A stretch of DNA of 64,000 bases, from the NCBI RefSeq assembly GCF_900103975.1, contig NZ_FNIR01000002.1:124001-188000 (forward strand), written 5' to 3'. Below the pieces are notes generated by a model. It did no database searches and was not told where the DNA came from. It saw nothing but the letters and a program-made list of their open reading frames with translations. Position 1 is the first letter of the stretch, and each line of letters starts with the position of its first letter. Made by a program: the position numbers and the translations under genes. Below are positions 14,985 through 29,330 of the stretch, in pieces. The DNA is from Klenkia soli. Lineage in GTDB: Bacteria; Actinomycetota; Actinomycetes; Mycobacteriales; Geodermatophilaceae.

Positions 14985-15098
14985 GTGCCCGAGCAGACGC
15001 AGGCCGCCGAGACCCCCGCCCCCACCGCCGAGGAGGTCCTCGTCGAGGAGTCCCTGGTGGAGGAGGTCTCCATCGACGGCATGTGCGGCGTGTACTGA
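14985..15098 (+). CDS. mftA: MftA, mycofactocin precursor peptide
   Basis: A 37-residue RiPP precursor. An acidic leader (EEVLVEESLVEEVS) ends in the diagnostic core IDGMCGVY, whose C-terminal Val-Tyr is converted to the redox cofactor. MftC oxidatively decarboxylates the Tyr and cross-links it to the Val; MftE then releases the modified dipeptide. The GTG start has a strong AGGAGG five bases upstream. mftB begins four bases after the stop, so the two are translationally linked. Confidence 0.95.
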   Translation: MPEQTQAAETPAPTAEEVLVEESLVEEVSIDGMCGVY

Positions 15099-15102
15099 GC
15101 CG

Positions 15103-15438
15103 TTGGCCGACACCCTCGTGACCGGGCCCGACACGGGCCCGGTCACGATCCCCGCGGATGAACTCCCCTTCGACCCGTCCCTGCCGTGGCAGAAGTCGCC
15201 GTCGGTGGCGCTGCGCCCGGAGCCGTTCGGCGCGCTGGTCTACCACTTCGGCAACCGCAAGCTGTCGTTCCTGAAGTCCCAGCCGCTGGTGGCGGTGGTG
15301 AAGGCGCTCGGCGAGCACCCCGACGTCCCCAGCACCCTGCGCGCCTGCGACGTCCCCGAGGCCCAGCACCCGGCCTACGTCACCGCGCTGGCCACCTTGT
15401 CCCGCTCGCAGATGATCACCAGGAGGGACCCGTCGTGA
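15103..15438 (+). CDS. mftB: MftB, mycofactocin precursor-binding chaperone
   Basis: A PqqD-like RiPP recognition element of about 111 residues. The conserved core is LRPEPFGALVYHFG followed by KLSFLKS. It binds the MftA leader and presents the peptide to the radical SAM enzyme MftC. The start is uncertain: TTG 15103 lies just after the mftA stop, while GTG 15118 would give 106 residues; neither has a clear SD. The stop overlaps the mftC start (GTGA). Confidence 0.92.
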   Translation: MADTLVTGPDTGPVTIPADELPFDPSLPWQKSPSVALRPEPFGALVYHFGNRKLSFLKSQPLVAVVKALGEHPDVPSTLRACDVPEAQHPAYVTALATLSRSQMITRRDPS

Positions 15439-16667
15439 CCGCTGTCCTGCCCACCCGCGCCCCGACCCAGCGGCCGACCGGCGGCAAGTTGATCGACCAG
15501 TTCGAGTACGGCCTGGACGCCCCGATCTGCCTGACCTGGGAGCTCACCTACGCCTGCAACCTGGCGTGCGCGCACTGCCTGTCCTCCTCGGGGCGCCGTG
15601 ACCCGCGCGAGCTGTCCACCGCCGAGGCCGAGGCGGTCATCGACGAGCTGCAGCGCATGCAGGTCTTCTACGTCAACGTCGGCGGTGGCGAGCCGACCGT
15701 GCGGCCGGACTTCTGGCACCTGCTGGACTACGCCATCGGCCACGACGTCGGGGTCAAGTTCTCCACCAACGGCGTGAAGCTGAACAAGGCCCGCGCCGCC
15801 CAGCTGGCCCGCACCGACTACGTCGACGTGCAGATCTCCCTGGACGGCGCCACCGCAGCGGTCAACGACCGGGTGCGCGGCGTCGGCTCCTACGCCACGG
15901 CGATCACCGCGCTGGAGAACCTGGCCGAGGCCGGGATGAAGGACTTCAAGGTCTCCGTCGTCGTCACCCGCGAGAACGCCGGCCAGCTCGACGCGTTCAA
16001 GGCCCTCACCGACTCCTTCGGCGCCCAGCTGCGCATCACCCGGCTGCGACCCAGTGGCCGCGGGGCCGACGTGTGGGACGAGCTGCACCCCACCATGGCC
16101 CAGCAGAAGGACCTGTACCAGTGGCTGCTGGCCAACGGCGACGGCGTGCTCACCGGGGACTCGTTCTTCCACCTCTCGGCGTTCGGTGAGGCCCTGCCGG
16201 GGCTGAACCTGTGCGGCGCCGGGCGCGTGGTGTGCCTGATCGACCCGGTCGGGGACGTCTACGCCTGCCCGTTCGCCATCCACGAGAACTTCCTGGCCGG
16301 CAACGTGCGCAGCCCCGGCGGCTTCCAGACCGTGTGGCAGCAGAGCGAGCTGTTCGCCGACCTGCGCAACCCGCAGACCGGCGGCGCCTGCACCAAGTGC
16401 CAGCACTTCGACTCCTGCCGGGGTGGCTGCATGGCGGCCAAGTTCTTCACCGGCCTGCCGCTGGACGGGCCCGACCCCGAGTGCGTGCAGGGCTACGGCG
16501 AGAGCGCCCTGGCCGCCCGCGACCTGGAGCTCGTCACCCCCAAGTCGCACATCGACCACTCGCACAAGGGCCCCGTCCGCGGCCAGCCCACGCTGCTCGG
16601 GATGCCGGCGATCCCGCCGGCGAAGATCTGCGACGAGTCGCCGCTGGCCGGGCTGGACCTGCGCTAG
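15435..16667 (+). CDS. mftC: MftC, radical SAM/SPASM mycofactocin maturase
   Basis: A 410-residue radical SAM enzyme. The SAM-binding cluster motif is C41-x3-C45-x2-C48 (YACNLACAHC). The C-terminal SPASM domain carries the auxiliary-cluster cysteines in LCGAGR, YACPF, CTKCQHFDSCRGGC and PEC. MftC decarboxylates the terminal Tyr of MftA and forms the Val-Tyr carbon-carbon bond. It begins with GTG inside the mftB stop and has AGGAGG at 15421-15426. The C-terminal extension with SHIDHSHKGP is typical of MftC. Confidence 0.95.
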   Translation: MTAVLPTRAPTQRPTGGKLIDQFEYGLDAPICLTWELTYACNLACAHCLSSSGRRDPRELSTAEAEAVIDELQRMQVFYVNVGGGEPTVRPDFWHLLDYAIGHDVGVKFSTNGVKLNKARAAQLARTDYVDVQISLDGATAAVNDRVRGVGSYATAITALENLAEAGMKDFKVSVVVTRENAGQLDAFKALTDSFGAQLRITRLRPSGRGADVWDELHPTMAQQKDLYQWLLANGDGVLTGDSFFHLSAFGEALPGLNLCGAGRVVCLIDPVGDVYACPFAIHENFLAGNVRSPGGFQTVWQQSELFADLRNPQTGGACTKCQHFDSCRGGCMAAKFFTGLPLDGPDPECVQGYGESALAARDLELVTPKSHIDHSHKGPVRGQPTLLGMPAIPPAKICDESPLAGLDLR

Positions 16668-16670
16668 CCC

Positions 16671-18524
16671 GTGCGGTTGACCGAACCCCTCCTGCTGGCC
16701 GGCAGGAGTGCGCCCTCCCGGGTGCTGTTCGGTCCGCACGAGACCAACCTCGGCGCCGGCCGGGCGCTGTCCCCGCGGCACGTCGCGTACTACGCGCGCC
16801 GTGCCGCGGGCGGCGCCGGGGTGGTCGTGGTCGAGGGCGCGTCGGTGCACCCCTCCGACCACCCGTACGAACGCGCCCCGCTGGCCGCCGACTGCGGGCC
16901 GGGGTGGGCCGCCGTCGGCGACGCCTGCCGGCCGCACGGCACGCTGGTGCTGGCCGGGCTGACGCACACCGGTGGACAGGGCTCGTCGGCCTGGACCCAG
17001 GCGCCGCCGTGGGGGCCCTCGCGGGTCCCGGACGTCGTCACCCGCGAGGTGCCGGTCCCGCTGGACGGCGGCCGCATCGCCGAGCTGACCGCGGGCTTCG
17101 CCGGGGCCGCGGCCACCGCGGTCGCCGCCGGGCTGGACGGGGTGGAGGTCGACGCCGGCCCGCGTTCGCTGCTGCGCCAGTTCCTGTCGGGGCTGACCAA
17201 CCACCGGGACGACGGCCACGGCACCGACCGCGCCCGGCTGCTGCGGGAGGTGCTGGCCGCCGTGCGCACCGCGCAGGGTCCGGACCGGCTGCTCGCCCTC
17301 CGGCTGAGCGTGGACGAGTCGGCGCCGTGGGCCGGGCTCACCCCCAAGGGCAGCGCCGCGCTGGTCGGCGTACTGGCTCCGCTGGTCGACCTGCTCACCC
17401 TGGTCCGCGGCAGCGCCCTCGACGTGGCCGCGTACCGCCCCACCGCACACCGGACGCCGACGTTCCACGTGGAACTGCTGGCCGCGGCCGGCGGCACCCC
17501 GGTGGTGGCGCAGGGGTCGGTCGTCGAGGCGGCGCACGCGGAGGAGCTGCTGGACGCCGGGTTCGCGGCCGTCGAGATGACCCGCGCGCAGATCGCCGAC
17601 GCCGGGTTCGTGGCCACCGTGCGCGCCGGTCGCCGTCCCCGGCCGTGCCTGCTGTGCAACCAGGCCTGCCAGGTGCTCGACACCCGCAACCCCCCGGTGA
17701 GCTGCGTGGTCGACCCCCGCAGCGGCCACGAGCTGACCGAGCCCGACACCGATGTCCCCGTCCCCGGCGGGGGACGCCGCGTGGTCGTGGCCGGTGCCGG
17801 GCCGGCGGGGCTGGAGGCGGCCCGGGTGCTGGCGCTGCGCGGGCACGACGTCGAGGTGGTCGCCCCGGCGGTCGGCGGCCTGCTGCCGCTCGTCGCGGCC
17901 GCGCCGGGCCGGGAGCGCTTCGGGTCGTTCGCCGACTGGCTGGTCGCCGAGTGCACCCGGCTGGGGGTCGCGTTCACCCCGGGCCGGGTCGAGGACGCCG
18001 ACGTCGTCGCCACCGGGGGGCGGGCGGCGGTGCCCGTCGTCCCCGGGGCGGTGCCGGCGGCCGACGTGCTGGCCGGTCGAGAGCTGCCACCCGGGCCGGT
18101 GCTCGTGCACGACCCGGTGGGTGGGCCGGTCGGGGTGGGGGTTGCCGAGCTGCTCGCCGCGGCCGGCCGCACGGTCACCCTCGCCACCCCGGACGACCTC
18201 GTCGGCGCCCGGCTCGGGCCCACCGGCGACCTGGTCGAGGCCAACCGCCGGCTCGCCGTCGCCGGGGTCCGCCGGGTGACCGCGGTCGTGCTGACCGGCT
18301 GGGCCGGAGGCCGGGCGGTGCTCGAGCACCGGTGGAGCGGGGAGCGCACCGAGGTGACCTGCGCCGTCGTCGTCGACGCGGGGCACCGACTGCCCGGTCG
18401 GGTGCTGCCCGACGAGGGCCGTGAGCGGTTCGCCGGGGACGTCGTCGCGCCGCGGACGGTGCTGGACGCCGTCCTCGAGGGCCGCCGCGCCGCCCTCGCC
18501 GTCGCCGCGGCGGTGCCCGCGTGA
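16671..18524 (+). CDS. Mycofactocin-associated FadH/OYE-family flavoprotein 1
   Basis: A 617-residue protein with the architecture of 2,4-dienoyl-CoA reductase: an old-yellow-enzyme FMN barrel (1-320), a 4Fe-4S motif with C326, C329, C333 and C345 (CLLCNQAC), and a C-terminal FAD/NAD(P) module with GAGPAG at 375-380. It starts 3 bases after mftC. Aligned by eye with E. coli FadH, the catalytic Tyr (SEGYLINEF) is a Ser (PRSLLRQF) and the catalytic His (GWHEAR) is a Leu (RGSALDV), so dienoyl reduction is unlikely. The C-terminal dinucleotide domain also looks reduced. A role in mycofactocin synthesis or electron transfer is inferred from position. Confidence 0.85.
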   Translation: MRLTEPLLLAGRSAPSRVLFGPHETNLGAGRALSPRHVAYYARRAAGGAGVVVVEGASVHPSDHPYERAPLAADCGPGWAAVGDACRPHGTLVLAGLTHTGGQGSSAWTQAPPWGPSRVPDVVTREVPVPLDGGRIAELTAGFAGAAATAVAAGLDGVEVDAGPRSLLRQFLSGLTNHRDDGHGTDRARLLREVLAAVRTAQGPDRLLALRLSVDESAPWAGLTPKGSAALVGVLAPLVDLLTLVRGSALDVAAYRPTAHRTPTFHVELLAAAGGTPVVAQGSVVEAAHAEELLDAGFAAVEMTRAQIADAGFVATVRAGRRPRPCLLCNQACQVLDTRNPPVSCVVDPRSGHELTEPDTDVPVPGGGRRVVVAGAGPAGLEAARVLALRGHDVEVVAPAVGGLLPLVAAAPGRERFGSFADWLVAECTRLGVAFTPGRVEDADVVATGGRAAVPVVPGAVPAADVLAGRELPPGPVLVHDPVGGPVGVGVAELLAAAGRTVTLATPDDLVGARLGPTGDLVEANRRLAVAGVRRVTAVVLTGWAGGRAVLEHRWSGERTEVTCAVVVDAGHRLPGRVLPDEGRERFAGDVVAPRTVLDAVLEGRRAALAVAAAVPA

Positions 18525-18667
18525 CCGCCCGGCTGGCGGTGCGGTGGCGCTCGGTGCGCCCGGCGCTGGCGTCCCTGCTGGTCAGCAAGCCCTGGTACCT
18601 GCGCGGCCCGGCGGCCTGGAGGCCGCGAACCGGGCGGCCGATGGCCGCGGCCCCGCGAGGGCCCTGA
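18521..18667 (+). CDS. Small basic ORF, 48 codons, coupled to flavoprotein 1
   Basis: A GTG start overlaps the stop of the preceding gene (GTGA), the same coupling used between several mft genes. The predicted product has 48 residues, is basic (RLAVRWRSVRP) and includes a Leu/Ser stretch and KPWYLRGP. No family is recognised. It ends one base before a hairpin. It may be a real small protein of the mft operon or a chance frame in GC-rich DNA. Confidence 0.35.
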   Translation: MTARLAVRWRSVRPALASLLVSKPWYLRGPAAWRPRTGRPMAAAPRGP

Positions 18668-18695
18668 CGACCCGACGCACCGATGCGTCGGGTCG
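18668..18695 (+). terminator. Perfect 12-bp hairpin before the SDR genes
   Basis: CGACCCGACGCA (18668-18679) pairs exactly with TGCGTCGGGTCG (18684-18695) across a four-base loop. No U-tract follows. It starts immediately after the 48-codon ORF and 45 bases before the first SDR. It could terminate or attenuate mftABC-OYE transcription, or mark an mRNA processing boundary that lets SDR levels differ from cofactor-biosynthesis levels. Confidence 0.6.
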
Positions 18696-18739
18696 CGCAC
18701 CGCCACCCCAGCGGGGGACTCGACGAGGAGGAACCACAG

Positions 18740-19555
18740 ATGGGCAAGCTCGAGGGCAAGGTCGCCTTCATCACCGGTGCGGCTCGAGGTCAGGGCCGTA
18801 GCCACGCCGTACGGCTGGCGCAGGAGGGCGCGGACATCATCGCGGTCGACCTGTGCGCGCAGATCGACTCGGTCGCCTACCCCATGGCGACCCCGGACGA
18901 CCTGGCGGAGACCGTGCGCCAGGTGGAGGCGTTGGACCGGCGGATCGTGGCCAGCCAGGCCGACGTCCGGAGCCTGGAAGCGCTGCAGGGCGCCGTCCGG
19001 GACGGCGTGGCGCAGCTCGGCCGGGTGGACATCGTGCTGGCCAACGCCGGCATCGCACCGATGGGCGAGGGAAGCGAGACACCGCAGGCCTGGCAGGACG
19101 TGCTCGACATCAACCTGACCGGCGTCTGGAACACCGTGCACGCCGCGGTGCCGACCATGGTCGAGCAGGGCGATGGCGGCGCGATCGTGCTGACCAGCTC
19201 GACGGCCGGGCTCAAGGGCATCGGCGGGGACTCCCCTGGTGGGGAGGGCTACACCGCGGCCAAGCACGGCGTGGTGGGCCTGATGCGCACCTTCGCGAAC
19301 ACGTTGGCCAAGCACCGGATCCGGGTGAACACCGTGCACCCGACGGGGGTCAACACCCCGATGGTGGTCAACGCGGTGATGGAGAAGTTCCTGGCCGAGG
19401 ACCCCTCGATCGCCAACGCGATCTCCAACCTGCTGCCGGTGGACATGATCGAGGCCGTCGACATCTCCAACGCGATCCTGTTCCTCGTCTCCGACGACGG
19501 CAGGTACGTCACCGGGACCACGCTGCCCGTCGACGCAGGGATCCTGGCCAAGTGA
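18740..19555 (+). CDS. Mycofactocin-coupled SDR-family dehydrogenase 1
   Basis: A 271-residue short-chain dehydrogenase. TGAARGQGRSHA is the nucleotide-binding glycine motif, NAG follows strand 4, and the catalytic set lies in LTSSTAG and GYTAAKHG. Between beta-2 (IIAVDLC) and ADVR is the extra segment of about 35 residues (PDDLAETVRQVEALDRR) that marks mycofactocin-associated SDRs, whose NAD is buried and not exchanged. Such enzymes are thought to be reoxidised by mycofactocin. A strong GAGGAGG precedes the ATG. The substrate, probably a secondary alcohol, is unknown. Confidence 0.93.
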   Translation: MGKLEGKVAFITGAARGQGRSHAVRLAQEGADIIAVDLCAQIDSVAYPMATPDDLAETVRQVEALDRRIVASQADVRSLEALQGAVRDGVAQLGRVDIVLANAGIAPMGEGSETPQAWQDVLDINLTGVWNTVHAAVPTMVEQGDGGAIVLTSSTAGLKGIGGDSPGGEGYTAAKHGVVGLMRTFANTLAKHRIRVNTVHPTGVNTPMVVNAVMEKFLAEDPSIANAISNLLPVDMIEAVDISNAILFLVSDDGRYVTGTTLPVDAGILAK

Positions 19556-20388
19556 CCGGCCGGGTCGAGGGCAAGGTCGCGTTCATCACCGGCGCGGCCC
19601 GGTCCCAGGGCCGCAGCCACGCGCTGCGGCTGGCCCAGGAGGGCGCCGACATCATCGCCGTCGACGTCTGCGGGCCGATCGAGAGCATCGGCATGTACCC
19701 GCCGGCCACCGACGAGGACCTCGCCGAGACCGTCCGTCAGGTCGAGGCGCTGGACCGGCGGATCGTGGCGACGAAGGCCGACGTCCGCGACACCGCGGCG
19801 ATGAAGGCCGCTGTCGACGAGGGGGTCGCGCAGCTGGGCCGGCTGGACATCGTGCTGGGCAACGCCGGGGTGTTCGAGATCCAGCCCGCGCTGGAGCTCT
19901 CGGACGAGGCCTGGCGGGAGATGATCGACATCAACCTGACCGGCGTCTGGAACACCTGCAAGGTCGCCCTGCCGCACCTCATCGAGGGCGGTCGGGGCGG
20001 GTCGATCGTGCTGACCAGCTCGACCGCGGGCCTCAAGGGGACGCCGAACACCATCCACTACACGGCGGCCAAGCACGGCGTCGTCGGCGTGATGCGCACC
20101 CTGGCCAACGAGTTCGCCCAGCACTCGATCCGGGTCAACAGCGTGCACCCGACCGGGGTGGACACGGTGATGATCCAGAACCAGAAGACCTGGGGGCTGT
20201 TCGCGCCCGACGACCCGAACCCGTCCCGGGAGAAGGCCGCGCCGATCTTCGAGTCGACCAACGCGCTGCCGATCCCGTGGGTGGAGCCGGTCGACATCTC
20301 CAACGCGATCCTCTTCCTGGTCAGTGACGAGGCGCGGTACATCACCGGCGTGACCCTCCCGGTCGACGCCGGCTACACGGTCAAGTGA
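19552..20388 (+). CDS. Mycofactocin-coupled SDR-family dehydrogenase 2
   Basis: A 278-residue paralogue of the preceding SDR, overlapping it by 4 nt (GTGA). It keeps TGAARSQGRSHA, the mycofactocin-type insertion (ATDEDLAETVRQVEALDRR), LTSSTAG and HYTAAKHG. The C-terminal half has the longer loop FAPDDPNPSREKAAP before NALPIPWVEP, which should reshape the substrate pocket. The two enzymes probably arose by duplication and may act on different alcohols or form a mixed tetramer. Confidence 0.93.
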   Translation: MTGRVEGKVAFITGAARSQGRSHALRLAQEGADIIAVDVCGPIESIGMYPPATDEDLAETVRQVEALDRRIVATKADVRDTAAMKAAVDEGVAQLGRLDIVLGNAGVFEIQPALELSDEAWREMIDINLTGVWNTCKVALPHLIEGGRGGSIVLTSSTAGLKGTPNTIHYTAAKHGVVGVMRTLANEFAQHSIRVNSVHPTGVDTVMIQNQKTWGLFAPDDPNPSREKAAPIFESTNALPIPWVEPVDISNAILFLVSDEARYITGVTLPVDAGYTVK

Positions 20389-20439
20389 TCACCGGGGCGG
20401 CCGGGGACCACCCCGGCCGCCCCCTCACGACGGGACACC

Positions 20440-21402
20440 ATGGACCAGATCCACCGGACGACGGCGTCTGCCGCCGCCGACGTGCGCGCCGTCCGTCAGC
20501 GCGTCGCCACCCACCTGGTCGGCCGCGAGCGCGAGACCGACCTGCTGCTGGCCGCCGTCGCGGCCGGCCGCGACGTGCTCATCGAGGGACCACCCGGGAC
20601 GTCGAAGTCCACCCTGCTGCGGGCGATCACCGCCGAGTGGGGCATCCCGCTGCTGTTCGTCGAGGGCAACGCCGACCTCACGCCGACCCGGCTGGTCGGG
20701 CACCACAACCCGGCCCGGGTGCTGCGCGAGGACTACACGGCCGAGAACTTCGTGGCCGGTCCGCTGGTCGAGGCCATGCGCAGCGGCGGCTTCCTCTACG
20801 TCGAGGAGTTCAACCGGGCCCCCGAGGACACCCTGAACACGCTGCTCACGGCCATGGCCGAGCGGTCGATCACGGTGCCGACCGTGGGCACCGTGCAGGC
20901 CGCCGACACCTTCCGGGTGGTCGCCTCGATGAACCCGTACGACGCGGTCGGCACCACCCGCATGCCCACCTCGGTCGCCGACCGGATGTGCCGGCTGGCC
21001 GTGGGCTACCAGGACGAGGACGCCGAGCGCGGCATCGTGGCCCGCCGCACCGGGCTGACCTCGGCGCGGTTGGTCGCCGACGCCGTCGCGCTGACCCGGG
21101 CGACGCGGGAGCGGGACGACGTCCGGCAGGGCAGCAGCGTGCGCGGCGCGATCGACGTCGCGCTCGTCGCCGCCCAGCTCGCCGCCATGCGCGGCACCGA
21201 GATCCCAGGAGCCGCGGGTTCCGGGATGCCGCCGCGGGACCTGCCGGCGGACTACACGGGCGTGGTGTGGGACGCGATGGTGGTGGCACTGAGCGGCCGG
21301 GTGCACCTGGACGAGATCGCCGAGCAGACCGCCGAGGGCGTGCTGCGCGAGATCTGGGAGGACCACTTCCTGCTCCGGCCCGCCGCGGCCGCCCCCGGTT
21401 GA
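20440..21402 (+). CDS. MoxR-family AAA+ ATPase (second pair)
   Basis: A 320-residue MoxR-type AAA+ protein, 51 bases after SDR 2. Walker A is GPPGTSKST (50-58), with Ser in place of the usual Gly before Lys. Walker B lies in FLYVEEFNRAPEDTLNTLL (a Glu-Glu pair), and VVASMNPYD is the sensor 1 segment. With the following VWA gene it forms a second MoxR-VWA chaperone pair. Placement inside the mycofactocin operon suggests it activates the SDRs or another mycofactocin enzyme (inference). Confidence 0.88.
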   Translation: MDQIHRTTASAAADVRAVRQRVATHLVGRERETDLLLAAVAAGRDVLIEGPPGTSKSTLLRAITAEWGIPLLFVEGNADLTPTRLVGHHNPARVLREDYTAENFVAGPLVEAMRSGGFLYVEEFNRAPEDTLNTLLTAMAERSITVPTVGTVQAADTFRVVASMNPYDAVGTTRMPTSVADRMCRLAVGYQDEDAERGIVARRTGLTSARLVADAVALTRATRERDDVRQGSSVRGAIDVALVAAQLAAMRGTEIPGAAGSGMPPRDLPADYTGVVWDAMVVALSGRVHLDEIAEQTAEGVLREIWEDHFLLRPAAAAPG

Positions 21403-21462
21403 AGAGCCGTCGAGGCCGACTCGCCGGTCACCCGCCGCGACCGGTCGGGGGCGCCGCGGGGG

Positions 21463-22392
21463 ATGCGGCCGCTGCGTCGCCGTCCCAAGCAGCTGACCGA
21501 GCAGCCGAGCACCTACGAGCCGTCGCGGGGTGGTGGCGGTCTCGCGCTGTCCTCGGGTGACCGGCGCCGGCAGCGCGCGAAGGCGCAGGGCGGCGGTTCG
21601 ACCCCCGGGACGACGGACGAGCCGGCCGACCTGATCGCGCTGGCCGACCTGGGCGCCCTGGCCGAGTCCGACGCGGTGACCCGGCAGCGGGCGCGGCAGA
21701 TCGCCCGCCGGCTCGCCGTCCCCCGTCCGCCGCGGGACCGCCGCGCCCGCCGCGGGGTGGGGGAGCTGGCCAGCGTGCGCTGGTCCGGCGGCTCCGACGA
21801 GCTCGACCTGGAGCGCACCGTCGACGCGCTGGCCGGCAAACCCTGGCCCGAGGACGACGACGTCGTGGTGCGCGAGCGGCTGCGCCGGCGGCGGTCGGTG
21901 GTGCTGGTGGTCGACGTCTCGGGCTCGATGAAGGGCGAACGCCTGCGGACGGCGGCCGCCACGGTGGGCGCGCTGGCCAGGGAGCTGGGCCGCGACTACC
22001 TGGCCGTCGTCGCGTTCTGGTCCGACGCCGCGGTGCTGGTGCCGCTGGGCGCACCGGTCGAGCCGCTCGGCGTCGTCGACCTGCTGCTGCGTGTGCCCAC
22101 CCAGGGCCTGACCAACGTCTCGTTCGCGCTCGAGACCGCGGGCCGGCTGCTGGTCGGGGTGCCGCCGCGGGACGCCCGGGTGCTGCTGCTCAGCGACTGC
22201 GTGCACAACGCCGGCCCCGACCCCCGGATCGCGGCGGCCCGGCTGCCCCGGCTGGACGTGCTGCTGGACACCAGCGGCGAGCAGGACGTCGACCTGGGCC
22301 GCGACCTCGCCCAGTTGGGCCGCGGCCGGATCCGCCTGGTCCGCGACCACGCCGACGTCGCCCGCGCCCTCACCGCCGTGTTCGCGGACTGA
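21463..22392 (+). CDS. VWA-domain protein, partner of MoxR ATPase (second pair)
   Basis: A 309-residue protein with a long basic, disordered N-terminus (1-50), a helical linker, and a VWA domain from about residue 145. The MIDAS is intact: DVSGSMKG at 151-158, the Thr in GLTNVSFAL and Asp in LLLSDC. It differs from the other VWA protein in the window, which has a degenerate MIDAS and a much longer N-terminus. The ATG sits directly behind GGGGG without a proper SD, so the exact start is uncertain. Confidence 0.83.
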   Translation: MRPLRRRPKQLTEQPSTYEPSRGGGGLALSSGDRRRQRAKAQGGGSTPGTTDEPADLIALADLGALAESDAVTRQRARQIARRLAVPRPPRDRRARRGVGELASVRWSGGSDELDLERTVDALAGKPWPEDDDVVVRERLRRRRSVVLVVDVSGSMKGERLRTAAATVGALARELGRDYLAVVAFWSDAAVLVPLGAPVEPLGVVDLLLRVPTQGLTNVSFALETAGRLLVGVPPRDARVLLLSDCVHNAGPDPRIAAARLPRLDVLLDTSGEQDVDLGRDLAQLGRGRIRLVRDHADVARALTAVFAD

Positions 22393-23404: not shown

Positions 23405-23448
23405 CGGTGCGCTGGCTGCGTGCCGGACCGCCCGGGCAGGATGCCGGC

Positions 23449-24315
23449 ATGCCGACGACCTTCCCGTCCCCCGCCGACGGTCTGCCGATCGCCACGTACA
23501 CCTGGGACGACGTCCCGGGCGAGCCCGTCGGGGTGGTGCAGCTCGTGCACGGGCTGGCCGAGCACGGCCCGCGCTACGACCGCTTCGCCCGCGCGCTGGT
23601 CGCCGCCGGGTTCGTGGTGTCCGCCGCCGACAACCGGGGCCACGGCGCCTCGGTGTCCGACGAGGTACCGCTGGGCAGCTTCGGGGCGGCGGGCACCGCG
23701 GGCTTCCTGGCCGACGTCGCGCAGCACTCCCGAGAGCTGGTGCAGACGCACCCCGACCTGCCGCTGTTCGCCTTCGCCCACTCGCTGGGCTCGATGGGCA
23801 TGCAGAGCGTGCTGCTGGACGAACCGGTCCGCTACGCCGGCGTGGTGCTCAGCGGCTCGACGACCCTCGACGGCCTCGGCGGGGTGCTCGCCGGGCTGCC
23901 CGCCGACCAGCCCGGTCTCGCGGCGTTCAACGCCGGCTTCGAGCCGCGCACCGGGTTCGAGTGGCTCAGCCGCGACCCCGCCGAGGTCGACGCGTACATG
24001 GCCGACCCGCTGTGCGGCTTCCTCACCGAGGACGCGATCATCGGCGGGGTGCTGGCCACCGCCGAGCGCACCGCCGACCCGTCCGGTGTCCGGGCCGACC
24101 TGCCGCTGCTGCTCGTCTCGGGCGACCGCGACCCGGTCGGTGGGCCGGGTGGTGCGAACGTGACCGCGCTGGCCGACCGGTACCGGGCCGCGGGCGTCGC
24201 CGACGTGACGCTCTCGCTGTACCCGGACGCCCGGCACGAGCTGGTCAACGAGACCAACCGCGACGAGGTCACCGCCGACGTCGTGGCCTGGCTGACCGCC
24301 CACCTGCCGGGCTAG
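23449..24315 (+). CDS. Alpha/beta hydrolase, monoacylglycerol-lipase-like
   Basis: A 288-residue alpha/beta hydrolase. The nucleophile elbow is AHSLGS with S112, the oxyanion-side motif is VHGLAEHG (33-40), a conserved ADNRGHG follows (60-66), the acid is probably in VSGDRDPVG and the catalytic His in DARHELVNE. This set matches the serine aminopeptidase/monoacylglycerol lipase family (hydrolase_4). The substrate is not deducible. Its stop codon overlaps the stop of the convergent lipoprotein gene. Confidence 0.82.
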   Translation: MPTTFPSPADGLPIATYTWDDVPGEPVGVVQLVHGLAEHGPRYDRFARALVAAGFVVSAADNRGHGASVSDEVPLGSFGAAGTAGFLADVAQHSRELVQTHPDLPLFAFAHSLGSMGMQSVLLDEPVRYAGVVLSGSTTLDGLGGVLAGLPADQPGLAAFNAGFEPRTGFEWLSRDPAEVDAYMADPLCGFLTEDAIIGGVLATAERTADPSGVRADLPLLLVSGDRDPVGGPGGANVTALADRYRAAGVADVTLSLYPDARHELVNETNRDEVTADVVAWLTAHLPG

Positions 24316-25286
24316 CCGGCGGCCAGCTGGTCCAGCACCACCCGGGCGGCGGCGGGGCCGGCGTTGAGGAACCACGCCTCGTCGTCCACCTGCACGGCGG
24401 TGCCGTCGGCCACGGCGGGCAACCCGGTCCACAGCGGGCTGGACAGCGCCGTGGCCTGCTCGGCCCCGGCCTGCACGCCGTAGAACAGCCGGTCGCCGCC
24501 GGCCCGCTGCAGCTCCTCGTCGGAGAGGTCCTGCGAGGTCCCGGTGAACTGCTGGTCGGCCGGCCGGGCGACGTCCGCGGCGGCGAGCAGGCTGCCCACG
24601 AAGGAGCCGACGCCCCAGATCCGGGTGCGGTCCGAGCCGATCCGCACGACGCTCACCGTGGCGCCGGCGAACTGCGCACCCACCTGGGCCGCGTCGCCGA
24701 GCAGGCCGCCGAGCAGCTGCTCGGCGTCGGCGGTGCGGCCCAGCGCCGCGGCGACCAGCAGCAGGTCCTGCTGCCAGTTCACGCCGGTGCCCTCGGTGAC
24801 GACCGTCGGGGCGATGCCGGCGAGGGCGGCGCCCACGGTCTCCGCGCCCACCGAGTTGACCAGCACGAGGTCGGGGCGCAGCGCGGCGATCGCCTCGAGG
24901 TCCGGTTCCAGCCGCAGCCCGACCGAGGTCAGGCCGGACAGGTCGGCGTCGGGGAAGGCCGCGGTCAGGTAGTCGGGCACGAGCCCGGCGCCGCTGGCCT
25001 GGGTGGCGCCGACCGGGACGACGCCCAGGGAGAGCACGTCGTCGAGCTGGCCGGTGCTGATCACCACCACGCGCTCGGGCGCCGCGGGGATCGTCGTCGT
25101 CCCGCCGAAGTGGACGACGTCCCGGGGGAAGACGCCGTCGGCCGCGGTGGACCCGAAGCCGTCGGGCAGCGCGTCGGGGGCGACACCGGACGCGGGTGCT
25201 GCGGAGGCCGCGGCGTCCTCCGTGGTCGGGGCGGCGCAGCCGGCCAGGACGAGGAGGCCGAGGACGGCGGAGACGGCACGGATCAC
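24312..25286 (-). CDS. Iron-siderophore ABC transporter substrate-binding lipoprotein
   Basis: A 324-residue FecB/FepB-type binding protein. The signal peptide ends in a lipobox, VLAGC with the lipidated C17, followed by an Ala/Ser linker. The periplasmic-binding fold shows PERVVVISTGQLDDVLSLGV and LRPDLVLVNS. An iron-box-like palindrome overlaps the promoter region, which fits control by a DtxR/IdeR-type repressor. No permease or ATPase genes are adjacent, so it would serve a transporter encoded elsewhere. Confidence 0.85.
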   Translation of the reverse strand: MIRAVSAVLGLLVLAGCAAPTTEDAAASAAPASGVAPDALPDGFGSTAADGVFPRDVVHFGGTTTIPAAPERVVVISTGQLDDVLSLGVVPVGATQASGAGLVPDYLTAAFPDADLSGLTSVGLRLEPDLEAIAALRPDLVLVNSVGAETVGAALAGIAPTVVTEGTGVNWQQDLLLVAAALGRTADAEQLLGGLLGDAAQVGAQFAGATVSVVRIGSDRTRIWGVGSFVGSLLAAADVARPADQQFTGTSQDLSDEELQRAGGDRLFYGVQAGAEQATALSSPLWTGLPAVADGTAVQVDDEAWFLNAGPAAARVVLDQLAAG

Positions 25287-25294
25287 CCGAGCAG

Positions 25295-25312
25295 GGTAAG
25301 GGTGCCCTAACC
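25295..25312 (-). promoter_or_regulatory. DtxR/IdeR-like iron box
   Basis: GGTAAGGGTGCCCTAACC is an 18-base near-perfect palindrome (one mismatched pair) matching the style of DtxR/IdeR sites (TTAGG...CCTAA). It starts 9 bases before the lipoprotein ATG on the minus strand and 28 bases before flavoprotein 2 on the plus strand. Iron-dependent repression of the siderophore-binding protein is the simplest reading; an effect on the divergent mft gene is possible. Confidence 0.7.
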
Positions 25313-25339
25313 CAGCAGTGCGGGTGGGACAGTGCGGGC

Positions 25340-27226
25340 GTGCAGATCCTGGAGCCGCTGGTGGTCCGGGGCCGCACGCTGCCCAGCCGGGTCGTCTCGT
25401 GCGCGCACCTCACCAACCTGGCCGTGGACCGGCTGCCCTCGCCCGCGCAGACCAGCTACTACGCGGCCCGGGCCGCCGGGGGTGCCGGGCTGGTCATCAC
25501 CGAGGAGCAGGCGGTGGACCCGGCCGACCAGCCCTACGAGAAGGTCGTCGACGGCACCGACCCGGCCGTCGCCCCCCGGTACCGCGAGATCGCGGACGCC
25601 GTGCACGGGCACGGCGGGCTGGTGGTCGCCCAGCTCAACCACAACGGCGGCCAGGGCAGCTCGCTGCACCCGCGGGTGCCGCTGGTCGCGCCCTCGCCGC
25701 TGGCCGACCCGCTGTTCGGCGAGGTGCCCCGGCAGGCGACCGCCGCCGACCTGGCCGGGGTCGTCGCCGGGTTCGCCCTCGTCGCCGGGCACGTGCGCGC
25801 CGGCGGTCTGGACGGCGTCGAGCTGCAGGCCTCGCAGTCCTCGCTGCTGCGGGCGTTCCTCTCCCGGCGGGCCAACCGCCGCGCCGACGGGTACGGGCGC
25901 GACCGGGACCGGCTGCTGCTGGAGGTGGTGGCCGCCGTCCGCGCGGCGCTGGGCCCGGACCTGCTGCTCGGCGTCCGGCTCGCCGTCCACGAACCGGACG
26001 GGACGACGACCGAGGACGCCGTCGCCACCGCCCACCGGCTGGCCGTGACCGGCGCGGTGGACTGGCTGTCGACGACGGTCGGGGTGGCCACCGAGTCGCT
26101 GTTCCTGGTCGAGCCCTCGATGGCGACGGCGCACGGCTACGCGCTGCCGCTGGCCGCGCGGCTCCGGGAGGCGGGGCTGCCGGTGATCGGGGTCGGCCGG
26201 GTGACCACCCCCGAGCAGGCCGAGGCGGCGTTGGCCCACTGCGACCTGGTCGGGGTGGTGCGCGGCCAGGTCGCCGACCCCGACTTCGTGGCGAAGGCCC
26301 GGCGGGGCGAACCGGTGCGGGCCTGCACGGGCTGCAACGAGTGCGCCGCGGGCATCGGCGCCGGGCGGCCGATGCGCTGCGTGCAGACCCTGGGCCCGGT
26401 GCCCGTGCCCCTGCGGGGTCCGGGGCGCCGCGTGGTGGTCGTGGGCGGTGGGCCGGCGGGGCTGCGGACGGCTGCGCTGGCCGCCGCGCACGGGCACCGG
26501 GTGACCCTGGTGGAGGCCGCCGACCGGCTCGGCGGGCAGCTGCTCCTGGCCGCGGCCGCCCCCGGTCGCGGCGAGCTGGCGGGGGTGGTCGACGCCGACA
26601 CCCGGGAGTGCGCCCGGTCGGGCGTCGAGGTGCGCACCGGCACCCGGGCCACCCCGGAGCTGCTCGCCGACCTGCGGCCCGACGTCGTCGTGCTGGCCAT
26701 CGGCGCGGTGCCGGCCCGCCCCGCCTGGGCCGGCGACGACCCGCGGGTGGTCCCCGCGGCCGACGTGCTGGCGGGGCGGGCGCACCCGGCCGGTGCGGTG
26801 CTGGTGGTCGACGAGCTGGGCGGACCGCACGCGTCGTCCACCGCGGAGCTGTTGGCCGCTCGCGGGTGCGCCGTCGAGGTGGTCACCGGCGCCCTCGTGG
26901 CCGCGCAGGCGCTGGGCCCGACGCTGGACCGCGAGCTGTGGCACCGCCGCGCCGCCGCGGCCGGGATCGCGCAGACCGTCGAGCGGGTGCCGCTGTCGGC
27001 CACGACGGGGGACGACGGACGGCGGACGGTCACGCTGCTCCACCACCTCACCGGCGCCGTCGAGACCCGGGTGGTGGACTGGGTCGTGACCGCCGCCCAC
27101 CCGACCCCGGTCGAGGCCCCCGCGGCGCCGCCCGGCATCCCGGTGCACCGGGTCGGCGACTGCCTCGCCCCGGCCGGCGTCCCCGGCGCGGTGGCCTCGG
27201 CGCACCGGGTCGTCACGACGTGGTGA
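25340..27226 (+). CDS. Mycofactocin-associated FadH/OYE-family flavoprotein 2
   Basis: A 628-residue paralogue of the OYE-like protein after mftC. The FMN barrel (1-325) includes VVAQLNHNGGQGSS; the Fe-S cysteines are C329, C332, C335 and C347 (spacing CxxCxxC, one residue shorter than usual); GGGPAG at 369-374 opens the FAD/NAD(P) module. As in paralogue 1, the FadH catalytic Tyr is replaced (SQSSLLRAF) and the His-bearing loop is different (TTVGVATES). Start is GTG 25340. Its stop overlaps the mftE start, so it is coupled to cofactor biosynthesis. Confidence 0.85.
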   Translation: MQILEPLVVRGRTLPSRVVSCAHLTNLAVDRLPSPAQTSYYAARAAGGAGLVITEEQAVDPADQPYEKVVDGTDPAVAPRYREIADAVHGHGGLVVAQLNHNGGQGSSLHPRVPLVAPSPLADPLFGEVPRQATAADLAGVVAGFALVAGHVRAGGLDGVELQASQSSLLRAFLSRRANRRADGYGRDRDRLLLEVVAAVRAALGPDLLLGVRLAVHEPDGTTTEDAVATAHRLAVTGAVDWLSTTVGVATESLFLVEPSMATAHGYALPLAARLREAGLPVIGVGRVTTPEQAEAALAHCDLVGVVRGQVADPDFVAKARRGEPVRACTGCNECAAGIGAGRPMRCVQTLGPVPVPLRGPGRRVVVVGGGPAGLRTAALAAAHGHRVTLVEAADRLGGQLLLAAAAPGRGELAGVVDADTRECARSGVEVRTGTRATPELLADLRPDVVVLAIGAVPARPAWAGDDPRVVPAADVLAGRAHPAGAVLVVDELGGPHASSTAELLAARGCAVEVVTGALVAAQALGPTLDRELWHRRAAAAGIAQTVERVPLSATTGDDGRRTVTLLHHLTGAVETRVVDWVVTAAHPTPVEAPAAPPGIPVHRVGDCLAPAGVPGAVASAHRVVTTW

Positions 27227-27933
27227 GCCTGGCGGGGGTGCGGTCGCCGGAGCTGGGCGGCCGGCCCACGGTCGTCGTCCCCCTCGGGTCGGTCGAGCAG
27301 CACGGGGCGCACCTGCCGCTGGGCACCGACACGACCGTCGCGGCCGCCGTCGCGGCCGGGTTGGTGGCCCGGCGGCCCGGGCTGCTGCTGGCCCCCGCCG
27401 TGCCCTACGGGGCCAGCGGCGAGCACGAGGGCTTCCCGGGCACGGTGTCGATCGGCACACCGGCGCTGACCACGCTGCTGGTGGAGCTGGGCCGGTCGGC
27501 CGGGCTGTGGGCCGGGCGGCTGCTGGTGGTCAACGGGCACGGCGGCAACCTCGAGGCGCTGCGGGCCGCCGTCCCGCTGCTGCGGCACGAGGGTCGGGAC
27601 GTCGCCTGGTTCCCCTGCGGTGTGCCCGGCGGCGACGCGCACGCCGGCCGCACCGAGACCTCCCTGCTGCTCCACGTGGAACCGGAGGCCGTGCGGGCCG
27701 AGCTGGCCGAGGCGGGGGAGACCGCACCGATCGCCGAGCTGCTGCCCCGCCTGCGGGCCGGGGGTGTGGCCGCGGTCAGCCCGAACGGCGTCCTCGGCGA
27801 TCCGACGGGTGCCACCGCGGACGAGGGGGCGCGGTTCCTCGCCGGCATGCTCGACCGGGCCGTCGCAGCGGTCGACCGCTGGCAGGTCGACCCGTCCGGC
27901 CGGCTGCTCCCCGCGGCGCCGGTGCCCGGGTGA
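27223..27933 (+). CDS. mftE: MftE, mycofactocin precursor peptidase (creatininase family)
   Basis: A 236-residue creatininase-like metallopeptidase. The metal ligands are visible as E25, H27 and D36 (SVEQHGAHLPLGTD), H106 (NGHGGN) and E145 (RTETS). MftE cuts the modified MftA to release the cross-linked Val-Tyr-derived AHDP. It starts with GTG inside the stop of flavoprotein 2 and ends inside the mftF start, so the three genes are one translational unit. It is 9 kb from mftC rather than adjacent to it. Confidence 0.92.
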   Translation: MSLAGVRSPELGGRPTVVVPLGSVEQHGAHLPLGTDTTVAAAVAAGLVARRPGLLLAPAVPYGASGEHEGFPGTVSIGTPALTTLLVELGRSAGLWAGRLLVVNGHGGNLEALRAAVPLLRHEGRDVAWFPCGVPGGDAHAGRTETSLLLHVEPEAVRAELAEAGETAPIAELLPRLRAGGVAAVSPNGVLGDPTGATADEGARFLAGMLDRAVAAVDRWQVDPSGRLLPAAPVPG

Positions 27934-29330
27934 CGCCGCCGGGCGGGCGGTTGCCCGACGGGTTCCGGGTGGTCCTGGACCCCCGCACCGGGCGGCGGGA
28001 CGGCGGGGCCGCGCTGCTGGGCGGGTCGCCGCTGCGGCTGCTCCGGCTGGCCCCACGCGCCCGCGCGTTGCTGACCGGCGACGAGCTGGTCGTCGCCGAC
28101 CCGACCACGGCGGTGCTGGCCGCCCGGCTGCTGGACACCGGCCTGGCCCACCCGCGGCTGGACCCCGTCGTCCCCGGTGACGTCACGGTCGTCGTCCCGG
28201 TCAAGGACCGCACCGCCGAGCTGAACCGGCTGCTGGCCGCCGTCCGGGCCGACCTGCCCGACGTCCCGGTGCTGGTCGTGGACGACGGCTCGGCCGACCC
28301 CGCGGTGACGGCCGCGGTCTGCGTCCGGCACGACGCCCGGGTGCTGCGGCACGACACCGCGCGCGGGCCGTCGGCCGCCCGCAACGCCGGCCTGCGCGCG
28401 GCCACCACCGGTGCCGTCGCGTTCGTGGACTCCGACTGCGTCCCGCGCCCGGGCTGGCTGGGGGTGCTGGCCGCGCACCTCGCCGACCCCCGGCTGGCGG
28501 TGGTCGCGCCGCGGATCGTCGCGCTGCCCGCGGGCCGCCCGGGCTGGGTGAGCGGCTACGAGGACGCCGTCAGCGCGCTGGACATGGGTGCGCACCCCGC
28601 GCCGGTGGCCCCGCTGACCGGGGTCTCCTACGTGCCCAGCGCCGCCCTGCTGGTCCGTCGGGCCGCGCTCGCCGCGGGCTTCGACGAGACCATGCAGGTC
28701 GCCGAGGACGTCGACCTGGTCTGGCGGCTGGCCGCCGCGGGTTGGCGGGTGCGCTACGAGCCCGGCGCCCAGGTCGCCCACGAGCACCCCGTGCGGACGA
28801 CGGACTGGCTGCGCCGCCGCGCCTTCTACGGCACCGGCGCGGCGCTGCTGGCCCGCCGGCACGGCCCGGCGGTCGCCCCGGTGGTGATGTCCCCGTGGTC
28901 GGCGGCGGCCTGGGCCCTGCTGCTCCTGGGTGGCCGCCCCGGTGGCCTGGCCGCCGCGGGTGTGCTGACCGTGGCCACGCAGAAGCTGGCCGCCCGGCTG
29001 GGCGACCCGCCGCCGACCGGGCTGGCCGCCACGCTCGTCGTCCGCGGGTCGTGGTCGGCCGGCCGCACGCTGGCCCGGTCGGTCACCCGGCACCACTGGC
29101 CGCTGGTCGTCCCGCTGCTGGGCGTGCAGCGGGTGCGCCGGCTGGTCGCGCTGGTCGCCGTCGCCGACGCCGCGGTGGCCTGGTGGCCGCACCGGCACGA
29201 GGTCGGCCCGCTGCGGTTCGCCGCCGGCCGCCGGCTCGAGGACCTCGCCTACGGCGCGGGCCTCTGGCGCGGCGCGCTGCGGGCCCGCGACCCCCGCGCG
29301 CTGCTGCCGGCGCGGCCGCCCCGTACGTGA
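27930..29330 (+). CDS. mftF: MftF, mycofactocin glycosyltransferase
   Basis: A 466-residue GT2-family glycosyltransferase. The GT-A domain covers about residues 85-290, with VVVPVKDR at the start, the metal/nucleotide motif DSD at 167-169 and a conserved EDVDLVWRL. Hydrophobic segments follow from about 320. MftF attaches a glucose oligomer to (pre)mycofactocin. The N-terminal 80 residues (LPDGFRVVLDP, LTGDELVVADPTTAVLARRLLD-like) are typical of MftF. It overlaps mftE by 4 nt. Confidence 0.92.
   Translation: MTPPGGRLPDGFRVVLDPRTGRRDGGAALLGGSPLRLLRLAPRARALLTGDELVVADPTTAVLAARLLDTGLAHPRLDPVVPGDVTVVVPVKDRTAELNRLLAAVRADLPDVPVLVVDDGSADPAVTAAVCVRHDARVLRHDTARGPSAARNAGLRAATTGAVAFVDSDCVPRPGWLGVLAAHLADPRLAVVAPRIVALPAGRPGWVSGYEDAVSALDMGAHPAPVAPLTGVSYVPSAALLVRRAALAAGFDETMQVAEDVDLVWRLAAAGWRVRYEPGAQVAHEHPVRTTDWLRRRAFYGTGAALLARRHGPAVAPVVMSPWSAAAWALLLLGGRPGGLAAAGVLTVATQKLAARLGDPPPTGLAATLVVRGSWSAGRTLARSVTRHHWPLVVPLLGVQRVRRLVALVAVADAAVAWWPHRHEVGPLRFAAGRRLEDLAYGAGLWRGALRARDPRALLPARPPRT

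What the first reader, a model, noticed from the sequence alone, without database searches (positions are those of the whole stretch)
14985..29330. Mycofactocin island without mftD but with two catalytically altered FadH/OYE flavoproteins
mftA, B, C, E, F and R are all present, but no FMN-dependent alpha-hydroxy-acid-oxidase-type MftD (the enzyme that oxidatively deaminates AHDP to premycofactocin) is in the window. Two FadH-like flavoproteins instead sit where it would be expected, one just after mftC and one coupled to mftE. In both, the FadH catalytic Tyr (SEGYLINEF) is replaced (PRSLLRQF, SQSSLLRAF) and the catalytic His loop is lost, while the FMN barrel and Fe-S cysteines remain. They could carry out the AHDP oxidation, feed or drain electrons of mycofactocin, or do an unknown step. 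mftD elsewhere in the genome is the main alternative.
Basis: partly seen in the sequence, partly recalled or inferred. Interest (0 to 1): 0.8.

Follow-up and report, generated by a model that had tools for sequence, protein, structure and literature searches.

The report
Stand-in module for mycofactocin enzyme MftD
The two odd flavoproteins in this mycofactocin gene island do not replace a missing enzyme in this bacterium, which carries that enzyme (MftD) elsewhere in its genome, but in related genomes that lack MftD the same pair usually sits in a larger electron-transfer module that probably does its job.

Summary
The island is real and its genes are as described, but its title is wrong for this organism: two bona fide MftD genes (703 and 702 bits, cut-off 471) lie elsewhere in the genome, one 58 kb from mftC. 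The two flavoproteins are catalogued families, mycofactocin OYE1 (TIGR03996) and OYE2 (TIGR03997), of unknown function. Among 31 mftC+ genomes outside the order, OYE2 passes its cut-off in 8 of 8 without mftD and 0 of 23 with it. In the order, OYE1+OYE2 occur in 8 of 9 mftD-less and 33 of 172 mftD-bearing genomes. In mftD-less genomes the pair is accompanied by ETF-alpha, FixC, FixX and ETF-beta (22 of 24 show at least part), but in only 5 of 32 examined genomes with both mftD and OYE2. OYE2 evolves as slowly as MftC where ETF is present and 2-5 times faster where it is not, as here. I infer an ETF-linked module that replaces MftD in many lineages; the window carries its orphaned flavoproteins. 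Which step it catalyses (AHDP deamination or mycofactocinol oxidation) is unproved.

The parts
14304..14876 (-). mftR (TetR regulator); the open frame runs 14304-15146, the domain ends near 14876
   Evidence: TIGR03968 228.2 bits, cut-off 224.9; MftR C-terminal domain
14985..15101 (+). mftA precursor, ends IDGMCGVY
   Evidence: TIGR03969 45.6 bits, cut-off 25; motif and sequence around the start
15118..15438 (+). mftB (start uncertain; domain from 15175)
   Evidence: TIGR03967 107.2 bits, cut-off 33
15435..16667 (+). mftC radical SAM maturase, the only copy over the cut-off in the genome
   Evidence: TIGR03962 640.5 bits; single copy over the cut-off
16671..18524 (+). OYE1: mycofactocin FadH/OYE family oxidoreductase 1
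   Evidence: TIGR03996 725.6 bits, cut-off 627.9; fold of histamine dehydrogenase, NCR and FadH
18683..19555 (+). mycofactocin-coupled SDR dehydrogenase
   Evidence: TIGR03971 396.4 bits, cut-off 300
19558..20388 (+). second mycofactocin-coupled SDR dehydrogenase
   Evidence: TIGR03971 417.3 bits (C-terminal half of open frame 18853-20388)
20440..21402 (+). MoxR-type AAA ATPase
   Evidence: AAA_5 84.3 bits; recurs near mft clusters
21463..22392 (+). VWA/CoxE-like protein
   Evidence: VWA_2 40.8 bits; recurs near mft clusters
25340..27226 (+). OYE2: mycofactocin FadH/OYE family oxidoreductase 2, divergent copy
   Evidence: TIGR03997 691.3 bits, under the cut-off of 793.15; departs at 34 of 140 positions invariant in mftD-less OYE2
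27223..27933 (+). mftE peptidase, 4-nt overlap with OYE2
   Evidence: TIGR03964 330.9 bits, cut-off 172; start
27930..29330 (+). mftF glycosyltransferase
   Evidence: TIGR03965 476.1 bits, cut-off 280

Best explanation
In this organism (close to Klenkia and Modestobacter) pre-mycofactocin is made by a normal MftD encoded outside the island. OYE1 and OYE2 belong to a module that, in its complete form (OYE1-OYE2-EtfA-FixC-FixX-EtfB, typically between mftC and mftE/mftF), replaces MftD in lineages that lack it. Proposed mechanism: OYE1 and OYE2 form a heterodimer of the FadH / trimethylamine dehydrogenase / histamine dehydrogenase type. Its FMN takes a hydride from C3 of the lactam (AHDP amine to imine, which hydrolyses to premycofactocin). 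Electrons pass through the [4Fe-4S] cluster to the dedicated ETF, then through FixCX to the quinone pool, so no O2-reducing oxidase is needed. Here the ETF chain is absent from the locus and OYE2 is under relaxed constraint: the pair looks orphaned and is probably accessory or decaying. Shown: MftD presence here, complementarity elsewhere, gene order, ETF linkage, rate shift. Inferred: heterodimer, substrate, electron path.
For: MftD x2 in the genome. Phylum sample outside the order: OYE2 over the cut-off in 8 of 8 mftD-less and 0 of 23 mftD+ genomes, Fisher p 1.3e-7. Order sample: both OYEs in 8 of 9 mftD-less vs 33 of 172 mftD+, p 3e-5. MftC tree: mftD needs at least 9 changes on the best tree; in 6 independent pairs on well-supported branches OYE goes the opposite way in 4-5 and the same way in none. 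Plasmids: of 12 with mftC, 4 have mftD and 6 others have OYE2, none both. ETF module beside OYE2: complete or partial in 22 of 24 mftD-less (18 complete) vs complete in 5 of 32 examined mftD+ OYE2+ genomes. OYE2:MftC distance ratio 0.9-1.1 with ETF, 2.2-4.7 without, while MftF:MftC moves only from 2.75-2.97 to 3.32-3.42. OYE1-OYE2 single-frame fusions in 3 Frankia and 1 Pseudonocardia locus. Fold neighbours are histamine, trimethylamine and 6-HPON amine dehydrogenases/oxidases as well as FadH and NCR. MftA keeps IDGMCGVY in 19 mftD-less loci. In M. smegmatis, deleting mftD abolishes MFT and AHDP-n accumulates (PMC7491314, passages), so mftD-less genomes need another route.
Against: No biochemistry. 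OYE2 constraint tracks ETF rather than mftD: the mftD+ ETF+ group is also slow (ratio 0.89, 6 pairs), which also fits a role in mycofactocinol re-oxidation. MftE, meant as a control, also rises without ETF (1.9-2.1 to 2.6-3.1), so part of the shift may be general to the cluster. mftG is rare in mftD-less or ETF+ genomes (1 of 26) and commoner in the other OYE1+ mftD+ genomes (13 of 30). The covalent-FMN Cys of TMADH/HADH and the FadH Tyr/His are absent, so catalysis cannot be read off a homologue. Exceptions: G117 (81% complete) has neither mftD nor OYE; G450 and G538 have no ETF near OYE2; G536 has OYE2 without OYE1; the Desulfovibrio locus has only weak EtfA/EtfB matches and no MftA found by the motif. 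The sign test on independent pairs gives a median p of 0.0625 (range 0.0625-0.125).
Confidence: 0.55

Rival explanations
1. The OYE1/OYE2-ETF-FixCX module is only an electron outlet: it re-oxidises mycofactocinol and passes electrons to quinones, like MftG. mftD-less genomes make the cofactor by another unrecognised oxidase, or make a different (for example amine) cofactor.
For: An ETF plus FixCX chain suits bulk electron flow. OYE2 constraint follows ETF, not mftD. mftG is over the cut-off in 1 of 26 mftD-less or ETF+ genomes (1 of 23 if only those with ETF seen are kept), against 13 of 30 other OYE1+ mftD+ genomes, 12 of which were not examined for ETF. MftD is of the alpha-hydroxyacid oxidase kind and could itself oxidise the hydroxy-lactam (inference).
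Against: It does not explain why the module appears where mftD is missing (8 of 8 vs 0 of 23). mftG is over the cut-off in 0 of 23 mftD+ OYE- genomes of the phylum sample, so the module does not simply complement mftG.
Confidence: 0.25
2. OYE1/OYE2 reduce or oxidise enoyl or other substrates unrelated to mycofactocin chemistry and are merely mycofactocin-associated. In mftD-less genomes an LldD-like paralogue does the MftD step.
For: Most mftD-less genomes hold alpha-hydroxyacid oxidase paralogues (best scores about 110-350 bits where any passed the threshold). FadH and naphthoyl-CoA reductase are close folds.
Against: Paralogues above 300 bits also occur in genomes with a true mftD (for example G358 308 bits, G571 316 bits), so they are not specific to mftD-less ones, and three mftD-less genomes show no match at E 1e-20 (G348, G351, G352). 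FadH catalytic residues are gone. OYE genes are operonic with mftC and track mftD loss.
Confidence: 0.12
3. One reading: in this very organism OYE1/OYE2 do the AHDP oxidation because there is no mftD.
For: Position between mftC and mftE; catalytic changes.
Against: Two MftD genes without internal stops in the genome. ETF partners absent from the locus. OYE2 departs at 34 of 140 conserved positions. In Klenkia terrae only the part of OYE2 behind residue 382 is found, without the FMN barrel, and 2 of 8 genus members show no OYE2 at E 1e-160.
Confidence: 0.04

Closest known systems
Mycofactocin system FadH/OYE family oxidoreductases 1 and 2 (NCBIfam TIGR03996, TIGR03997)
   Same: OYE1 is over its cut-off and OYE2 is a best hit in the syntenic place
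   Different: The window OYE2 scores under its curated cut-off and is divergent; no function is given in the NCBIfam names or in the paper passages seen
mft_etfA (NF038209) and mft_etfB (TIGR04503), mycofactocin-associated electron transfer flavoproteins
   Same: They form part of the complete module in mftD-less operons
   Different: Absent from the window locus; their link to mftD loss was found in none of the papers seen
MftD, pre-mycofactocin synthase (TIGR03966)
   Same: Occupies the position after mftC in other operons; proposed to do the same chemical step
   Different: Different family (alpha-hydroxyacid oxidase / lactate dehydrogenase kin); the window OYEs give no TIGR03966 match
Histamine / trimethylamine dehydrogenases and 6-HPON amine oxidase (3k30, 6de6, 2tmd, 6l6j)
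   Same: Fold match over the whole length, TM-score 0.82-0.89 on the models; amine oxidation and genetic pairing with ETF in the nicotine pathway (PMC5500553, passages)
   Different: The flavin-linking Cys and the Tyr are absent; the OYEs carry an invariant Arg instead
Saccharopolyspora mycofactocin-like clusters in BGCFlow (PMC11162802)
   Same: mft clusters with TIGR03997 and no mftD in the cluster (17 BGCs; section 28 read)
   Different: The section and passages seen report no whole-genome mftD search, ETF module, complementarity test or replacement mechanism

Membership tests
Mycofactocin biosynthetic cluster | mftA, mftB, mftC, mftF together | tested here: met
   All over curated cut-offs
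Mycofactocin biosynthetic cluster | MftD in the genome | tested here: met
   Two copies, 703 and 702 bits, outside the window
TIGR03996 OYE1 | curated cut-off | tested here: met
   725.6 vs 627.9
TIGR03997 OYE2 | curated cut-off | tested here: not met
   691.3 vs 793.15; best hit, syntenic, divergent
FadH (2,4-dienoyl-CoA reductase) | catalytic Tyr166 and His252 (roles recalled; positions) | tested here: not met
   Ser/Ala and mostly Ala or variable; 110 sequences aligned
TMADH/HADH amine dehydrogenases | fold with FMN barrel, 4Fe-4S, dinucleotide domain | tested here: met
   TM 0.82-0.89; Cys motif
TMADH/HADH amine dehydrogenases | 6-S-cysteinyl FMN Cys (role recalled; title in the reference list of PMC5500553) | tested here: not met
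   Glu/Val/Leu in 54 of 58 OYE1, Leu in 50 of 52 OYE2 at that column
ETF-linked OYE module (proposed) | EtfA-FixC-FixX-EtfB beside OYE2 | tested here: not met
   None in the window or the 54 kb left of it; the rest of the genome was not searched for ETF
ETF-linked OYE module (proposed) | AHDP or mycofactocinol oxidation by the purified pair | not testable with these tools
   needs biochemistry
MftD | TIGR03966 match by OYE1 or OYE2 | tested here: not met
   Genome-wide search: 7 matches, none in the window; not among the 14 families of OYE1 or the 25 shown of 39 for OYE2

The most novel reading that the evidence does not exclude
Mycofactocin has two interchangeable, non-homologous ways to make (and perhaps recycle) its redox centre: the MftD oxidase, and a six-gene flavoprotein-ETF-quinone module (OYE1-OYE2-EtfA-FixC-FixX-EtfB) that needs no O2. 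Lineages have switched repeatedly. The window shows a late stage, in which unlinked MftD has taken over, ETF is gone from the locus and the OYE pair is being released from constraint or turned to another use.
Probability: 0.5. Interest if true: 0.8.

Novelty: new variant of a known kind. Interest (0 to 1): 0.6.

Why it matters
If true, it fills the missing step in mycofactocin pathways that lack MftD, among them a Desulfovibrio genome and perhaps haloarchaea (no mftD on the plasmid; chromosome not searched), and gives a function to four uncharacterised NCBIfam families. It explains how mycofactocin could be made without O2, and it would mean that cluster rules which require mftD (antiSMASH 6.1.1, as described in PMC11162802) miss real mycofactocin clusters.

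Tried and rejected
Strong form of the finding (no MftD here): rejected. OYE as a simple MftG substitute: not supported by the phylum sample, where mftG is over the cut-off in 0 of 31 whichever type, but not excluded inside the order. G005 and G033 first counted as mftD-less; a relaxed search showed fragmentary MftD, so they were moved to mftD+. mftD neighbours in this genome (flavodoxin-like protein, sulfotransferase, DUF3097, LacI regulator) gave no clue to function. The region around the genome's mftG match (L131) held none of the query genes. OYE2 in the order was counted at E 1e-160, laxer than the curated cut-off (35 genomes over it, 53 at E 1e-160), because the genus's own syntenic OYE2 scores 682-784. 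Ten genomes at 564-657 bits were dropped as paralogues: eight have no mftC, two (G160, G222) have mftC and mftD; none has OYE1. OYE1 was counted at E 1e-130 (44 genomes, 42 over the cut-off). Among the 23 mftD+ phylum genomes 4 had sub-cut-off OYE2 hits (493-562 bits) and 3 of these sub-cut-off OYE1 hits (284-306), none beside mftC. Three mftD-less OYE1 loci (L032, L043, L044) were left out of the ETF count because the contig ends near the OYE genes. Of 34 mftD+ OYE2+ order genomes, 24 loci were fetched for the ETF count (plus 8 named ones); 10 were not. A test of mftD against ETF on the MftC tree (opposite way in 3-5 of 6 pairs, same in none) is not used as evidence, because ETF was set to absent, unexamined, in most mftD-only rows. 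Ayikpoe 2019 review and Ellerhorst 2022 are not held, so a prior statement of replacement there cannot be excluded; searches of the held library showed none in listings or in the passages read.
Full report
WHAT IS THERE. The window is contig C18:124001-188000 of a 4.76-Mb, 25-contig genome. The nearest named relatives of its OYE1 are Modestobacter sp. Leaf380 and Klenkia species at 77-84% identity. The island reads mftR(-), mftA, mftB, mftC, OYE1, two mycofactocin SDRs, a MoxR-type AAA ATPase, a VWA protein, three genes not seen as part of the system (pyridoxamine-oxidase-like, hydrolase, periplasmic binding protein), OYE2, mftE, mftF. OYE1 is a curated match to TIGR03996. OYE2's best match is TIGR03997 at 691 bits, under the cut-off of 793. 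Both names already exist in NCBIfam. The terms OYE, FadH and 'old yellow' do not occur in the main text of Haft 2011 (PMC3023750; find and section 9), and BGCFlow calls the function unknown (PMC11162802, section 28).

MFTD IS NOT MISSING FROM THE ORGANISM. A genome-wide search finds two MftD genes over the curated cut-off: C18:79941-81086, 58 kb from mftC and 43 kb left of the window, and C8:161758-162906, 93% identical to the first. NCBIfam calls both pre-mycofactocin synthase MftD. All 8 sampled genomes of the genus have mftD. In 7 of 8 it lies on the same contig, about 31-58 kb from mftC (or from OYE1, for three genomes whose mftC coordinates were not listed); in the eighth (G229, 260 contigs, two matches of which one is listed) the listed one is on another contig. 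All 60 mftC+ genomes of the family in the sample have mftD.

CO-OCCURRENCE, ORDER. 348 genomes were searched with each of four profiles. mftC is over the cut-off in 181. After a relaxed search of the negatives, 172 of these have mftD (two of them as fragments) and 9 do not. OYE1 and OYE2 are both present in 8 of 9 mftD-less genomes and 33 of 172 mftD+ genomes (Fisher p 3e-5; thresholds and dropped rows are told under Tried and rejected). The one exception, G117, is an 81%-complete assembly. One further genome (G173, 75% complete) has both OYEs, no mftD and only a piece of mftC at a contig end.

CO-OCCURRENCE, PHYLUM. 276 genomes, asked for at 90% completeness or more, were searched for mftC; 42 have it, 31 of them outside the order. 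All 31 were searched for the other families. mftD is over the cut-off in 23, and none of these has OYE1 or OYE2 over the cut-off (4 have weaker hits away from mftC). The other 8 all have OYE2 over the cut-off (G393 only with its neighbours in frame). In seven OYE1 is also present (in G624 as a 556-bit piece at a contig end; in G393 with its neighbours in frame). G536 has OYE2 alone. Fisher p is 1.3e-7. Both states occur within families f43 and f58, so this is not one clade. On an 82-row MftC tree (quick search, SH-aLRT support only) mftD needs at least 9 changes on the best tree. Six independent pairs on well-supported branches show OYE going the opposite way in 4-5 and the same way in none (sign test median p 0.0625, range 0.0625-0.125, limited by the number of pairs). 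Two very long branches (L055, L073) make their own places unsure.

NAMED CASES. 18 of the 42 named OYE1 loci were followed to their genomes: 8 have MftD over the cut-off (Pseudonocardia, Frankia, Antrihabitans) and 10 do not. The ten include isolates Nocardiopsis potens and Marinactinospora thermotolerans and a Desulfovibrio MAG, in which no TIGR03966 match at all was found at E 1e-20. Among 12 plasmids with mftC, 4 carry mftD and 6 (all Streptomyces) carry OYE2; none has both. The remaining two are haloarchaeal. The one read, Haloterrigena pHTUR01, has no mftD on the plasmid but a 625-bit OYE2-like protein. Host chromosomes of the plasmids were not searched.

THE MODULE. Three annotated Streptomyces plasmid operons show mftA-mftB-mftC-OYE1-OYE2-EtfA-FixC-FixX-EtfB, with mftE and mftF behind it (in one of them only mftE; its MftF-like gene lies upstream). 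A fourth lacks OYE annotations but has matching stretches by tblastn, OYE2 in two pieces. EtfA and EtfB are NCBIfam NF038209 and TIGR04503, 'mycofactocin-associated' electron transfer flavoproteins. With these proteins as tblastn queries, 22 of 24 mftD-less genomes with readable flanks have the chain near OYE2. It is complete in 18. In four it is partial: two cut by contig ends, one without EtfB, and the Desulfovibrio with only weak EtfA/EtfB matches on the other strand. G450 and G538 have none near OYE2. Of 32 examined mftD+ genomes with OYE2 (24 of the 34 in the order sample plus 8 named ones), 5 have the complete chain (G125, G231, G302, G318, G314). Four others (L140, L141, L142, L149) keep only a short EtfA piece; in the two inspected in detail (L140, L142) it is the C-terminal part. 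The window has none, nor do the 54 kb to its left; the rest of this genome was not searched for ETF.

CONSTRAINT. Kimura distances relative to MftC give, for OYE2, 1.01 (mftD-less, ETF+, 91 pairs), 1.12 (Streptomyces plasmids, 3), 0.89 (mftD+ ETF+, 6), 2.20 (mftD+ without ETF, other genera, 169) and 4.67 (Geodermatophilaceae, no ETF at the locus, 89). OYE1 gives 1.71, 2.02, 1.65, 2.56 and 4.09. MftF, as control, gives 2.75, 2.97, 2.85, 3.32 and 3.42; MftE, the other control, gives 2.06, 2.08, 1.88, 2.59 and 3.06, so it rises too, though less than the OYEs. In the Geodermatophilaceae group of 15 rows mftD was verified only for the window, L068 and L150; for the named relatives it rests on the family pattern. 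Pairs share branches and are not independent. The ordering holds for pairs matched for MftC distance, although only 1 pair remains for the mftD+ ETF+ group. Window OYE2 departs at 34 of 140 positions invariant in 25 mftD-less OYE2 (leave-one-out values for mftD-less rows are mostly 0-5, largest 21); window OYE1 departs at 2 of 84. In Klenkia terrae only the part of OYE2 behind residue 382 is found.

ACTIVE SITE AND STRUCTURE. AlphaFold2 models of the window proteins (mean pLDDT 88.2 and 87.0) match FadH, naphthoyl-CoA reductase, histamine dehydrogenase, trimethylamine dehydrogenase and the 6-HPON amine oxidase over their length (TM 0.82-0.89 on the query). In 110 aligned OYE1/OYE2 sequences FadH Tyr166 is Ser or Ala and Asn169 is always Arg; the Cys at the HADH flavin-linking position is absent from the residues listed; a Gln two residues after the HxG motif is invariant. 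OYE1 and OYE2 are one open frame in three Frankia loci and in Pseudonocardia sp. N23, which argues that they act together.

MECHANISM AND ITS LIMITS. MftD oxidises the 3-amino group of AHDP (PMC8728441, passages), and an M. smegmatis mftD deletion abolishes mycofactocin while AHDP-n accumulates (PMC7491314, passages). mftD-less genomes therefore need another enzyme or make another product. Their MftA is intact: IDGMCGVY in 19 mftD-less loci, VDGICGVY in G536, none found by the pattern in the Desulfovibrio locus. Apart from MftC, a FadH/HADH-type pair with its own ETF and FixCX is the only set of redox genes shared by the three annotated operons. A relative in nicotine breakdown (Pno) is an FMN/[4Fe-4S] amine oxidase of this family in a cluster with etfAB and ETF:ubiquinone oxidoreductase (PMC5500553, passages). 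That the module does the AHDP step is an inference from complementarity. An outlet role for mycofactocinol remains possible, because OYE2 constraint follows ETF and because mftG is over the cut-off in 1 of 26 mftD-less or ETF+ genomes, against 13 of 30 other OYE1+ mftD+ genomes (12 of these 30 not examined for ETF). Both could be true of one enzyme acting at C3 of the lactam.

VERDICT. As a claim about this genome the finding is mostly refuted: MftD is present, and the OYE pair here is likely a relic or accessory. As a pointer to biology it is good: it leads to a recurrent, testable alternative to MftD. Parts are catalogued and the missing mftD with OYE2 was remarked in Saccharopolyspora (PMC11162802). 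I found no statement of the whole-genome complementarity or the ETF link in the library searches made (listings, and the passages and sections of the papers named above).

Noticed in passing
window 20440-22392; L036, L070, L080, L083, L087: A MoxR-type AAA ATPase and VWA protein pair sits by the mycofactocin SDRs and recurs near mft clusters with and without mftD; a VWA and AAA pair is also annotated by the haloarchaeal plasmid cluster. Possibly a chaperone for mycofactocin-dependent enzymes.
   Followed up: partly
window 15116-15148: Perfect 15-nt inverted repeat with a 3-nt loop between the mftA stop and the mftB domain; may set the mftA:mftB expression ratio.
   Followed up: no
L002 / L011 (G000:C8:161758-162906): A second mftD, 93% identical to the first, beside a LacI-type regulator and a periplasmic binding protein gene; of 8 genus members only this genome and G229 show two matches.
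   Followed up: partly
L029:9983-14164, L033:9986-14086, L035:2766-6893, L052:9989-13984: OYE1 and OYE2 run as one open frame (natural fusion) in three Frankia loci and Pseudonocardia sp. N23.
   Followed up: partly
L017:15903-16577: Klenkia terrae shows only a C-terminal dinucleotide-domain stretch of OYE2; the FMN barrel part is not found at the locus.
   Followed up: yes
L140, L141, L142, L149: Short EtfA-like pieces between OYE2 and mftE in mftD-bearing genomes of family f13 (C-terminal in the two inspected): apparent relics of the ETF chain.
   Followed up: partly
L044 genome (G353:C80:5244-6401): A 349-bit TIGR03966 match with one internal TAG in an Acidimicrobiaceae MAG that carries OYE1: decayed mftD or paralogue, unresolved.
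   Followed up: no
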